Part shown: positions 9,224-37,933 of the stretch, piece by piece
How positions within the stretch are numbered: the stretch's first letter is position 1
How the letters are laid out: every line of letters begins with the position of its first letter
Origin: Exiguobacterium sp. 9-2
GTDB taxonomy: Bacteria; Bacillota; Bacilli; Exiguobacteriales; Exiguobacteriaceae
Assembly (NCBI RefSeq): GCF_036287235.1
Contig: NZ_CP142850.1
Coordinates: 2,385,336-2,449,335 of the forward strand
Length of the DNA: 64,000 nucleotides
Direction of reading: 5' to 3'
Program-made: the position numbers and the translations under genes
Notes under the pieces: generated by a model
Seen by the model: the letters and a program-made list of their open reading frames with translations, nothing else
The model's database searches: none
What the model was told of the DNA's origin: nothing

Positions 9224-9331
9224 TGCTCTCATCTCCCAGACTTTTGTCTGCTGGAATTAGCACCACTTCGGATCAGATCCGCGGTTGCCGGGTTTCATCG
9301 GGCCAGTCCCTCCACCACTCTCGATAAGAGT
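9224..9331 (-). promoter_or_regulatory. SAM-I (S-box) riboswitch
   Basis: The minus strand carries the conserved S-box blocks in order: CTCTTATCGAGAG, GGAGGGACTGGCCC, GATGAAACCCGGCAACC, GGTGCTAATTCCAGCAG and CTGGGAGATGAGAG. The first and last blocks pair as helix P1. The element lies directly upstream of a strong terminator and metNPQ, the standard layout of an OFF switch that senses S-adenosylmethionine. Confidence 0.97.
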
Positions 9332-12597: not shown

Positions 12598-12626
12598 GTT
12601 AATTCCGAGTAATCGGATATGAATTA
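12598..12626 (-). promoter_or_regulatory. Nested inverted repeat in the yrrT 5' UTR
   Basis: The minus strand contains TTAATTC and GAATTAA flanking an inner repeat TCCGA/TCGGA, just after the predicted transcription start. This could be an operator, for example for a CymR-like sulfur regulator, or a small RNA hairpin; neither is established. Confidence 0.4.
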
Positions 12627-12646: not shown

Positions 12647-12675
12647 ATTGTAGCAAGGAGATTCTATCCTGGCAA
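12647..12675 (-). promoter_or_regulatory. Sigma-A promoter of yrrT-luxS-mccAB
   Basis: The minus strand reads TTGCCA, 17 nt, TACAAT, with a predicted start near 12640. It lies downstream of the terminator at 12706-12740, so the operon does not depend on the upstream RNA's promoter. Confidence 0.78.
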
Positions 12676-12705
12676 GCGACCGGCTCGAAAAACTTCCAGA
12701 AAACA

Positions 12706-13018
12706 AAAAAAAGGCGTTGCCGGCGAACCGACAACACGAATAATGTGGTTAGAAATGCTACGAAGGAAAACCCAGCTCCATTCGGAATTGTTCGCTCTTC
12801 CGCGTGGAGGACGGCGCCTGTTCGACATGATCGCCAGCTTACGTTCACTTCCTGATCGGTCCTTTCGATCCACCACCCGTTCATTGCACCGCTTCGTCTT
12901 TGGGGGACGACTTAAGGGGAAACAATACACCGGCTTAGGATGGGAGAAAGGGTTCAGGACTTGAATCGTATTGAACGATCATCTCTGCTAGACTTCCTAT
13001 AATGCATTTCTAGAAGTT
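12706..13018 (-). ncRNA. Unassigned structured RNA with its own promoter and terminator
   Basis: A transcript of about 310 nt is bounded by a TTGACA-18-TATATT promoter and a terminator whose 10 bp stem with a TTCG loop (about 12715-12740) is followed by eight T. Its ends pair: TAGAAATGC at 13012-13004 matches GCATTTCTA at 12758-12750, continued by GGAA/TTCC and CTAGC/GCT-type pairs. Inside are ATCGT/ACGAT, CCATCC/GGGTGG, TCGTC/GACGA, GATCG/CGATC and GGCG/CGCC helices. I do not see the signature blocks of RNase P, SRP, 6S or tmRNA, a T-box or a known riboswitch. It could be a free RNA or a long leader of the yrrT operon. Confidence 0.6.
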
Positions 13019-13024
13019 GTTATG

Positions 13025-13054
13025 AATATACCATTCATATTTCTGCGTTGTCAA
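13025..13054 (-). promoter_or_regulatory. Sigma-A promoter of the unassigned RNA
   Basis: The minus strand has a consensus TTGACA at 13054-13049 and TATATT at 13030-13025, with an 18 nt spacer. Confidence 0.8.
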
Positions 13055-13075
13055 CGGATTATTGTAAATATTCCG
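13055..13075. promoter_or_regulatory. Palindromic operator candidate next to the -35 box
   Basis: CGGATTATT GTA AATATTCCG is a 9+9 bp inverted repeat with one mismatch. It directly abuts the -35 box of the unassigned RNA, a position suited to a DNA-binding regulator. The binding protein is unknown. Confidence 0.5.
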
Positions 13076-13085
13076 ACAATTTAAC

Positions 13086-13112: not shown

Positions 13113-13394
13113 TTACCGTTCTTGACAGAAAGCAAAGACGTTTTGGACAGACTGGAAAGCATAAAGTCGCTCTACGACTTGGTTTTCTTCAATTCGCAAC
13201 AACGCAGGAACACTCATGACACGGGCTTCTTCTAAGAAATCCGGAATGAAATTCCCGTTCGCCTTCTGAATCGATTGACCTGATTCCGTCGCTTCGACGA
13301 TATCGAGCATTCGTTCCGCGATAGCGCATGTCCCGCACATCGGTGCATAGACATACAATAGCCCGTTTTCCGGGACGGTCGTGACTTCTTGCAT
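13113..13394 (-). CDS. Thioredoxin-like protein (YusE type)
   Basis: This is a 93-residue thioredoxin-fold protein with the redox motif CGTCA in APMCGTCAIAERML and the cis-proline in VMSVPALLRIEEN. Size and position next to gcvH match B. subtilis YusE. The substrate is unknown; a disulfide reductase or transfer role is inferred from the fold. The ATG at 13394 has AGGAG 9 nt upstream, whereas the long in-frame extension beyond it crosses the gcvH terminator and is not coding. It appears to be a single-gene transcript. Confidence 0.75.
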   Translation of the reverse strand: MQEVTTVPENGLLYVYAPMCGTCAIAERMLDIVEATESGQSIQKANGNFIPDFLEEARVMSVPALLRIEENQVVERLYAFQSVQNVFAFCQER

Positions 13395-37192: not shown

Positions 37193-37577
37193 TTTAAATA
37201 CCTCCCTTTTGATTAATACAATATATTTGTGTTTACAAAAAAGCATTCCTACTATATATAAGGTAAGAATGTTTCTTTCAACTTCTTATTTTTTTTATTT
37301 GATATATTCATTAAGCTCATCGAATAATTTTTTGTCTAATTTTAACTATATCCTCACACATTTTTTAGTAGCTGTTTGATATTAGTTGGGAGTTATATAA
37401 TCTAGTAATGAGTCAACAAACAGATTAATCCCATTTTTTGTTATAAATTATTATATCATATCTCTATTCACAGAATTCAAGTTTGAAAAGTGTATATTCA
37501 AAGTTTTAATAAATAAAAAAATGTCTAAATCCTATTAGAGGACTTAGACATTTTTGAAATCCTAAGATTTCAGGGTA
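37193..37577. other. AT-rich intergenic stretch between the nuclease gene and ssrA
   Basis: No complete gene is seen. A short minus-strand open stretch near 37296-37340 would encode DKKLFDELNEYIK followed by a stop, possibly the end of a decayed gene. The only clear feature is the ssrA terminator at 37514-37555. No copy of the ssrA 3' end that would mark an attachment site was found. Confidence 0.5.
37514..37555 (-). terminator. Terminator of ssrA
   Basis: The stem AAATGTCTAAgTCC/GGAtTTAGACATTT is followed by TTTTTATTT on the minus strand, about 22 nt past the tmRNA CCA end. Confidence 0.9.
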
Positions 37578-37933
37578 TGGAGACGGTGGGAGTCGAACCC
37601 ACGTCCGAAGGCATCGTATACTTAAGCTTCTACGTGTGTAGTCAATTTATTGGGATCTCGTCGTCAGGCTGCCAATTGACAGGCGTCCGTCCGACCAGTC
37701 TGATTCCATCTCTTCTCTTTCCCTCCAGACGGAAGGGTCCAAGCGTAGCCTGTTTAAAGTGAGACCCTAGAAATCAGCCGACCAGGCGACAGCTGCTAGG
37801 ATCCGCAGTTGCTATTACGCTGCTGCGAGTTGTGTGTTAGTTTTGCCAGTTATGGCTGGTGCGTTTTAACGAGGCCGACCCCTCGACACGCCACAGAAGA
37901 CCGAACTACCCCCGTCGAATCCGTAACGTCCCC
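37578..37933 (-). ncRNA. ssrA: Transfer-messenger RNA (tmRNA)
   Basis: The RNA of about 356 nt rescues stalled ribosomes together with SmpB. The 5' end GGGGACGTTACGG pairs with the 3' end CGTCTCCA to form the acceptor stem, and the 3' part has the T-arm GGACGTGGGTTCGACTCC. The tag frame is at 37847-37815: it starts at the resume codon GGC and reads GKTNTQLAAA followed by tandem stops TAA TAG. The CCA is encoded. The 5' boundary is set from the acceptor pairing. Confidence 0.96.

What the first reader, a model, noticed from the sequence alone, without database searches (positions are those of the whole stretch)
12706..13054. Unassigned structured RNA gene upstream of yrrT-luxS-mccAB
A TTGACA-18-TATATT promoter and a terminator with eight T define a minus-strand transcript of about 310 nt. 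Its two ends pair over 9 bp and continue in a second helix block, with at least five inner helices. None of the signature blocks of RNase P, SRP, 6S, T-box or S-box RNAs are visible. A separate good promoter at 12675-12647 drives the sulfur operon, so this looks like a free RNA; a leader that senses a sulfur metabolite is the alternative.
Basis: partly seen in the sequence, partly recalled or inferred. Interest (0 to 1): 0.72.

Follow-up and report, generated by a model that had tools for sequence, protein, structure and literature searches.

The report
Unlisted structured RNA in Exiguobacterium
All the Exiguobacterium-type genomes examined carry a roughly 310-base RNA of no catalogued family, which folds into a long rod with a run of C's exposed at its tip and looks like a free regulator that could block the start sites of other genes' messages.

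Summary
Rfam 15 has no match to it. A copy lies in 38 of 38 genomes held of this bacterial family: 19 in the window's genus, 19 in its sister genus. All 37 distinct sequences are predicted to share paired ends, a second helix and a long irregular rod tipped by an unpaired GUCCCCCAAA loop. Compensatory changes support the fold in both genera. In the sister genus no yrrT follows the RNA (0 of 19 loci); a SAM riboswitch follows in 11 of 11 loci scanned. It is therefore most likely a free RNA, not a yrrT leader. The interval is RNA-free in the 4 other-family genomes where it could be read. My best explanation is a trans-acting antisense RNA whose C-rich loop pairs with Shine-Dalgarno sequences. 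Candidate targets are gntP in the window's genus and gcvT in the sister genus. A CodY-like box sits just upstream of the promoter in all 38. Expression, targets and CodY control are inferred, not shown. It looks like a new RNA family that probably works like known C-rich sRNAs, though its architecture is unusually large.

The parts
13067..13081 (-). CodY-box-like site (AATTGTCGGAATATT on the minus strand; consensus AATTTTCWGAAAATT recalled, 3 mismatches), just upstream of the -35
   Evidence: 5 matches in the 64 kb window, 3.17 expected by chance; same position in 38 of 38 genomes, 3 mismatches in 19 of 19 of the window's genus and 2 in 19 of 19 of the sister genus; in sister-genus locus L041 chance expectation 0.03 per 8 kb
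13025..13054 (-). sigma-A type promoter TTGACA-18-TATATT
   Evidence: TTGACA, TATATT and the flanking GAATG and CAT are invariant in 38 of 38
13023..13037 (-). TGAATGGTATATTCA, dyad GAAT-5-ATTC over the -10, possible operator
   Evidence: only match in the window with up to 2 mismatches, 0.16 expected; GAATG.TATATTCAT invariant in 38 of 38
12705..13018 (-). the RNA gene; start inferred about 7 nt after the -10, end at the T run
   Evidence: present in 38 of 38 genomes
13004..13012 (-). P1, 5' strand UAGAAAUGC (partner 12758-12750)
   Evidence: replaced by CUUGA-CAC/GUG-UCAAG in the sister genus
12750..12758 (-). P1, 3' strand GCAUUUCUA
12994..12998 (-). P2, 5' strand AGGAA (partner 12768-12764, UUCCU); AGGAC/GUCCU in the sister genus
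12764..12768 (-). P2, 3' strand UUCCU
12816..12993 (-). P3, long irregular rod carrying the C-rich loop
   Evidence: 68-79 pairs enclose the loop in 37 of 37 distinct sequences (P1 and P2 included in that count)
12899..12908 (-). apical loop region GUCCCCCAAA, proposed antisense seed
   Evidence: identical in 38 of 38; mean unpaired probability of CCCCCAAA 0.81-1.0 in 37 distinct sequences
12770..12815 (-). P4 side hairpin ending in the conserved UGGGUU segment
12705..12737 (-). intrinsic terminator with eight T
   Evidence: stem keeps pairing through changes in both genera
12647..12675 (-). separate promoter of yrrT-luxS-mccAB
   Evidence: kept in the window's genus by eye on the rows (weaker in L025)
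13113..13394 (-). upstream thioredoxin-like gene (no Pfam hit; weak NCBIfam thioredoxin match), the syntenic anchor in both genera
   Evidence: present beside the RNA in 38 of 38 loci

Best explanation
This is a free-standing regulatory RNA of about 310 nt that defines an uncatalogued family. It has its own promoter and its own terminator (sequence evidence). Its ends pair, and a three-way junction carries a short hairpin and a long imperfect rod (supported by comparison). The tip of the rod exposes GUCCCCCAAA, the best conserved unpaired element shared by the two genera. Inferred: this loop pairs in trans with G-rich Shine-Dalgarno sequences (core UUUGGGGGA) and blocks ribosome binding, as the C-rich motifs of staphylococcal sRNAs do. 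Best target leads are the gluconate permease gene gntP in the window's genus and the glycine-cleavage gene gcvT in the sister genus. Also inferred: transcription answers to nutrient state through CodY at a box just upstream of the -35.
For: Own promoter and terminator. Found in 38 of 38 family genomes. Fold: all 37 distinct sequences have P1 (8-10 pairs), AGGA paired with UCCU, 68-79 pairs enclosing the tip, and the tip unpaired with p 0.81-1.0. Covariation in the window's genus, 12 of 18 distinct sequences: 16 of 67 pairs change on both sides, 42 cells against 12.3 in shuffles (0 of 500) and 2-10 in slid controls. Sister genus, 19 sequences: 14 of 75 pairs, 82 cells against 31.1 (0 of 500) and 4-17 in slid controls. 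A model built only from the first genus, without the promoter, hits the RNA in 11 of 11 sister-genus loci given: 9 in full at 20-31 bits, 2 in part at 16 and 11.6 bits, the last at E 0.12. The loop is invariant while the rod below it diverges. Targets: gntP start regions in 18 of 18 orthologues pair with the loop at -16.5 to -20.1 kcal/mol; gcvT start regions in 19 of 19 sister genomes at -17.5 to -19.4 with the sister loop. With the window-genus loop, 327 open-frame starts from 400 kb of the own genome average -8.2, sd 3.2. CodY-like box at one position in 38 of 38.
Against: No expression data. The only target evidence is complementarity to Shine-Dalgarno sequences, which are G-rich anyway, and both candidates were picked with a pattern containing the complement, so their high rank is partly selected; the background set used the 15-nt window-genus loop, the gcvT energies a 19-nt sister loop. 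Neither target holds in both genera: GntP homologues give -13.3 to -14.7 in 10 of 11 sister-genus loci read (of 17 sister genomes with a match), one -16.4, and -11.8 in G007; gcvT of the window's genus gives -14.5 to -16.1 in the 7 starts read correctly. In whole genomes the first-genus model finds the true place in only 1 of 19 sister genomes at E up to 1; 8 sister genomes show another weak hit, which is a gene end plus a terminator. Two covariation measures in the sister genus are not exceptional (32 and 299 of 500 shuffles), and one in the first is only mildly so (11 of 500). A 70-bp rod is more than a seed loop needs and suggests a further role. The best 13-base complement of the tip outside the gene itself has 2 mismatches. 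CodY presence was not shown; a typed motif was absent from the 464 kb of this genome looked at.
Confidence: 0.6

Rival explanations
1. It is a cis-acting leader or attenuator of the yrrT-luxS-mccAB operon that senses a sulfur metabolite; the 12737-12714 hairpin is a conditional terminator.
For: Lies directly upstream of yrrT in 19 of 19 loci of the window's genus, within a sulfur gene cluster.
Against: yrrT has its own promoter. In the sister genus yrrT is absent from 19 of 19 loci (about 1.2 kb read past the RNA) and a SAM riboswitch follows in 11 of 11 loci scanned, with a MetN-like gene next in the 3 loci read further. An alternative antiterminator fold was not tested.
Confidence: 0.04
2. 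It is a structural or protein-binding RNA (scaffold, RNA-polymerase or RNA-binding-protein decoy) in which the rod, not the C-rich loop, is the working part.
For: Very long rod predicted in 37 of 37 sequences and supported by compensatory change; invariant internal segments such as AUAGGA and UGGGYUKUCCUUC shared by both genera that a seed loop alone would not require.
Against: The unpaired loop GUCCCCCAAA is the best conserved exposed element of both genera while most of the rod is free to change. 6S RNA is present elsewhere. By eye, no array of exposed GGA motifs as in CsrB-type decoys; not counted by a call.
Confidence: 0.25
3. A dual-function RNA that encodes a small peptide (like RNAIII of Staphylococcus aureus).
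For: Some sequences have short frames in the 5' arm, e.g. 15 codons in the window (read). In the sister genus an ATG is kept in 19 of 19, but its frame has no stop inside the RNA.
Against: No frame with a start kept in 90% of sequences and a stop inside the RNA at a steady distance in either genus (12 and 19 sequences); the frame of the window has stops in near relatives.
Confidence: 0.03
4. A diverged member of a known family (RsaE/RoxS, RNase P, SRP, 6S, T-box or another) that Rfam models miss.
For: C-rich motifs resemble RsaE/RoxS and other Gram-positive sRNAs.
Against: cmscan of 4227 families finds nothing above cut-off on the RNA in the window, in 11 sister-genus genomes and in L016, L018, L025 and L038. 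RsaE is 93 nt (PMC8334554), about a third of this RNA; 6S is elsewhere.
Confidence: 0.08

Closest known systems
RsaE/RoxS (Firmicute sRNA, Rfam RsaE)
   Same: C-rich UCCCC motifs that pair with ribosome-binding sites of metabolic mRNAs (passages of PMC8334554)
   Different: 93 nt with two motifs (PMC8334554); this RNA is about 310 nt, shows one exposed motif shared by both genera on a long rod, and gives no Rfam hit. Whether the genome also has RsaE was not tested.
RsaD of Staphylococcus aureus
   Same: C-rich region that blocks the alsS ribosome-binding site, and control by CodY (passages of PMC8334554 and PMC9266662), the same pairing of features proposed here
   Different: 176 nt; sequence relation not tested here; CodY control of this RNA is only a motif match
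RNAIII of Staphylococcus aureus
   Same: Large structured RNA, some of whose stem-loops are rich in C and serve contacts with mRNAs (PMC9266662 passage)
   Different: 514 nt, 14 stem-loops, encodes delta-haemolysin, agr-linked; this RNA has no conserved closed frame and a different predicted plan
SAM riboswitch (S box)
   Same: Neighbour: lies at 9330-9226 in the window and directly after the RNA in 11 of 11 sister-genus loci scanned
   Different: Separate element with its own Rfam match; the RNA itself does not match it

Membership tests
RsaE/RoxS | match to the Rfam covariance model | tested here: not met
   no hit at gathering level in window or the relatives scanned and none up to E 10 for the region
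RsaE/RoxS | exposed C-rich motif able to pair with Shine-Dalgarno sequences | tested here: met
   GUCCCCCAAA predicted unpaired in 37 of 37 distinct sequences; function untested
Gram-positive C-rich antisense sRNAs (as a mechanism) | binds a target mRNA at its ribosome-binding site through the C-rich motif | tested here: inconclusive
   strong predicted duplexes with gntP and gcvT start regions, but candidates were pattern-selected and genus-specific
Gram-positive C-rich antisense sRNAs (as a mechanism) | independent transcript with own promoter and terminator | tested here: met
   sequence evidence only, no transcript data
cis-acting leader (T-box, S-box, other riboswitch) of yrrT | stays linked to the regulated gene | tested here: not met
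   yrrT beside the RNA in 19 of 19 loci of one genus, 0 of 19 of the other
6S RNA | match to RF00013 | tested here: not met
   the genome's 6S is at G000:C1:2130996-2131185, 78 bits; this RNA has no match
CodY regulon | CodY box at the promoter | tested here: inconclusive
   2-3 mismatches to the recalled consensus, same position in 38 of 38; chance expectation in the window for 3 mismatches is not small (3.17 per 64 kb)
CodY regulon | CodY binds and changes transcription | not testable with these tools
   needs EMSA or a codY mutant

The most novel reading that the evidence does not exclude
A family-wide RNA of a new architecture: a rod of about 70 base pairs, kept by compensatory change while much of its sequence is free to vary, holds one invariant C-rich loop away from a three-way junction. 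The rod could act as a spacer or a protein or ribosome docking arm, so that the RNA is a built-in translation-control particle for many G-rich start sites and not a simple antisense sRNA.
Probability: 0.15. Interest if true: 0.8.

Novelty: new member of a known kind. Interest (0 to 1): 0.52.

Why it matters
It is a clear, testable RNA family present in every genome held of a widespread extremophile group. My searches (listings, plus passages of two genus papers) showed machine-predicted sRNA counts but no described sRNA for the genus. It can be cloned and knocked out directly. If the C-rich loop works as proposed, it shows the staphylococcal RsaD logic (nutrient regulator, C-rich RNA, metabolic start sites) in a lineage-specific RNA of very different build. 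Published RNA-seq of E. antarcticum B7 (PMC4247613, passages) filtered reads of annotated ncRNA and counted coding regions, so older data could be re-read for this transcript.

Tried and rejected
Sulfur-operon leader: rejected on gene order. Known family: rejected by cmscan and by 6S lying elsewhere. Small peptide: no conserved closed frame. Homologues outside the family: model R1 over 299 class genomes gave 14 window-genus genomes and one other, G178, E 0.006, 22.5 bits; its sequence is a terminator hairpin beside a coding gene, so I treat it as chance. That search also missed every sister-genus genome it listed (13), so it cannot exclude distant homologues. Weak R1 hits of 112 bases in 8 sister genomes are the end of a coding gene plus a terminator. 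Syntenic intervals: of 27 trx-like loci in other families, 12 were read; 4 have a good MetN match in reach (L281, L285, L288, L291) and hold no such RNA, judged by eye and by a C-rich pattern; two more (L287, L292) have only weak ABC matches and were not counted. A pseudoknot between CCCA of the tip and the conserved UGGG (4 bp possible in both genera) was considered, not tested. The -10 dyad resembles an ARG box with the spacer one base too long (recalled); not followed. In one search my start picker chose a wrong upstream start for 4 of the 11 window-genus gcvT loci fetched (11 of 19 genomes); those 4 are left out of the energy range given.

Full report
What was checked. The promoter (TTGACA-18-TATATT), the terminator with eight T and the separate yrrT promoter are all there. 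The RNA folds at -111.9 kcal/mol, z -4.7, with 0 of 100 shuffles as stable. Helices in window coordinates: P1 13012-13004 with 12758-12750; P2 12998-12994 with 12768-12764; a long rod 12993-12816 whose tip loop region is 12908-12899; a side hairpin 12815-12770; terminator 12737-12714. Rfam 15 gives only tmRNA, a SAM riboswitch and a tRNA in the window, and nothing above cut-off in the region even at E 10.

Distribution. blastn with the 361-base gene and promoter finds it in 19 of 19 genomes of the window's genus (own genome included), and by the promoter part alone in 11 of 19 of the sister genus. A query from the sister genus finds it in 19 of 19 there. So 38 of 38 genomes held of this family have one copy at these cut-offs. 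An exact promoter pattern in the named genome collection gave 13 stretches, all with Exiguobacterium in the title. In four other-family genomes where the trx-like gene and metN lie within reach, the interval has no such RNA. The model search over 299 class genomes found 14 window-genus members and one spurious terminator. It missed the 13 sister-genus genomes it listed, so distant homologues are not excluded.

Gene order. The trx-like gene lies beside the RNA in 38 of 38 loci. Window's genus: gcvH, trx-like, RNA, then yrrT (19 of 19 loci), luxS, a cysteine-synthase-like gene and mccB, then a MetN-like gene (window and L043). Sister genus: yrrT in 0 of 19 loci; a SAM riboswitch follows the RNA in 11 of 11 genomes scanned, then a MetN-like gene in the 3 loci read further (L040, L041, L046). 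The RNA stays with the upstream gene while the downstream operon changes, which argues against a leader function.

Structure. Two alignments support the fold. Window's genus (12 of 18 distinct sequences, A1): 97.9% of cells pair, 16 of 67 pairs change on both sides, 42 such cells against 12.3 in shuffles and 2-10 in slid controls; further pair types reached by 11 of 500 shuffles. Sister genus (19 sequences, A4): 98.7% pair, 14 of 75 pairs, 82 cells against 31.1 and 4-17; two measures there are not exceptional (pairs with both-side change 32 of 500 shuffles, further pair types 299 of 500). Between genera P1 and P2 are rewritten but keep pairing: UAGAAAUGC/GCAUUUCUA against CUUGA-CAC/GUG-UCAAG, and AGGAA/UUCCU against AGGAC/GUCCU. 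P1 and P2 never vary inside the sister genus, and P2 never in the first, so they rest on that comparison and, for P1, on two varying pairs in the first genus. A model of the first genus, RNA only, hits the RNA in the 11 sister loci given: 9 in full at 20-31 bits, 2 in part (16 bits; 11.6 bits, E 0.12). In whole sister genomes it reaches E up to 1 at the true place in only 1 of 19. All 37 distinct sequences have P1, P2 and 68-79 pairs around the tip, with the tip unpaired at p 0.81-1.0. The rod aligns poorly between clades, so its covariation is probably under-counted, and MFE folds are predictions.

Function, inferred. GUCCCCCAAA is invariant in 38 of 38 and predicted to be exposed. It complements G-rich Shine-Dalgarno sequences. 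A pattern for the complement before ATG gave 90 matches in 9 genomes against 16 for the reversed pattern, but Shine-Dalgarno sequences are G-rich in any case. Two leads stood out. gntP (NCBIfam gluconate:H+ symporter): 18 of 18 orthologues in the window's genus (G007 has only a 41% homologue) keep GGGGGAAGUCA, 17 with at least four U before it and one with UUAU, at -16.5 to -20.1 kcal/mol. gcvT: 19 of 19 sister genomes keep GUUCGGGAUUGGGGGAU at -17.5 to -19.4 although the sequence further upstream varies. Background from 327 start sites averages -8.2, sd 3.2 (window-genus loop). Both leads were chosen by the pattern, and neither holds in both genera. No glycine riboswitch was found at the four gcvT loci scanned (L251, L260, L267, L273).

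Promoter. Thirty-eight of the 69 bases ahead of the RNA are invariant in all 38 genomes, and a CodY-like box lies at one fixed place, with 2 mismatches in the sister genus and 3 in the window's genus. In the sister genus this is unexpected by chance (0.03 per 8 kb); in the window alone it is not. A dyad over the -10 may be a second operator.

Literature. Passages of two reviews describe C-rich staphylococcal sRNAs, RsaE (93 nt) and CodY-repressed RsaD (PMC8334554, PMC9266662). Of the genus papers I saw passages of two: one predicts sRNAs by program and counts them (PMC10837837), one filters ncRNA reads (PMC4247613); their supplements were not read. Searches for Exiguobacterium with sRNA, noncoding RNA and covariation, non-coding RNA (for E. 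antarcticum), candidate structured RNAs and RoxS gave no description of this RNA in what they listed; one search listed 10 of 229 papers, and only open-access papers are held.

Verdict. A real, conserved, structured and most likely free RNA family, outside Rfam. Mechanism: most likely C-rich antisense control of translation (0.6), with a protein-docking or scaffold role as the main rival (0.25).

Noticed in passing
window 12604-12617: Inverted repeat TCCGATTACTCGGA (minus strand) between the yrrT promoter and the yrrT start, kept with small changes in the window's genus (rows, by eye); a candidate CymR or other operator (name recalled).
   Followed up: no
window 9226-9330: SAM riboswitch before metNIQ (88.9 bits); in the sister genus the same element directly follows the RNA gene (11 of 11 scanned).
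   Followed up: partly
L251-L269 gcvT start regions: Invariant 5' flank GTTCGGGATTGGGGGAT in 19 of 19 sister-genus genomes, with no Rfam riboswitch at the three of these loci scanned; kept well beyond a Shine-Dalgarno sequence.
   Followed up: partly
window 12738-12749 and sister-genus counterpart: The linker ACCACAUUAUUC between P1 and the terminator is unpaired and nearly invariant in the window's genus, GUGCUACGUUCU in the sister genus; possible protein or RNA contact.
   Followed up: no
   Followed up: no
window 37575-37933: tmRNA gene, full-length Rfam match, 181 bits.
   Followed up: no
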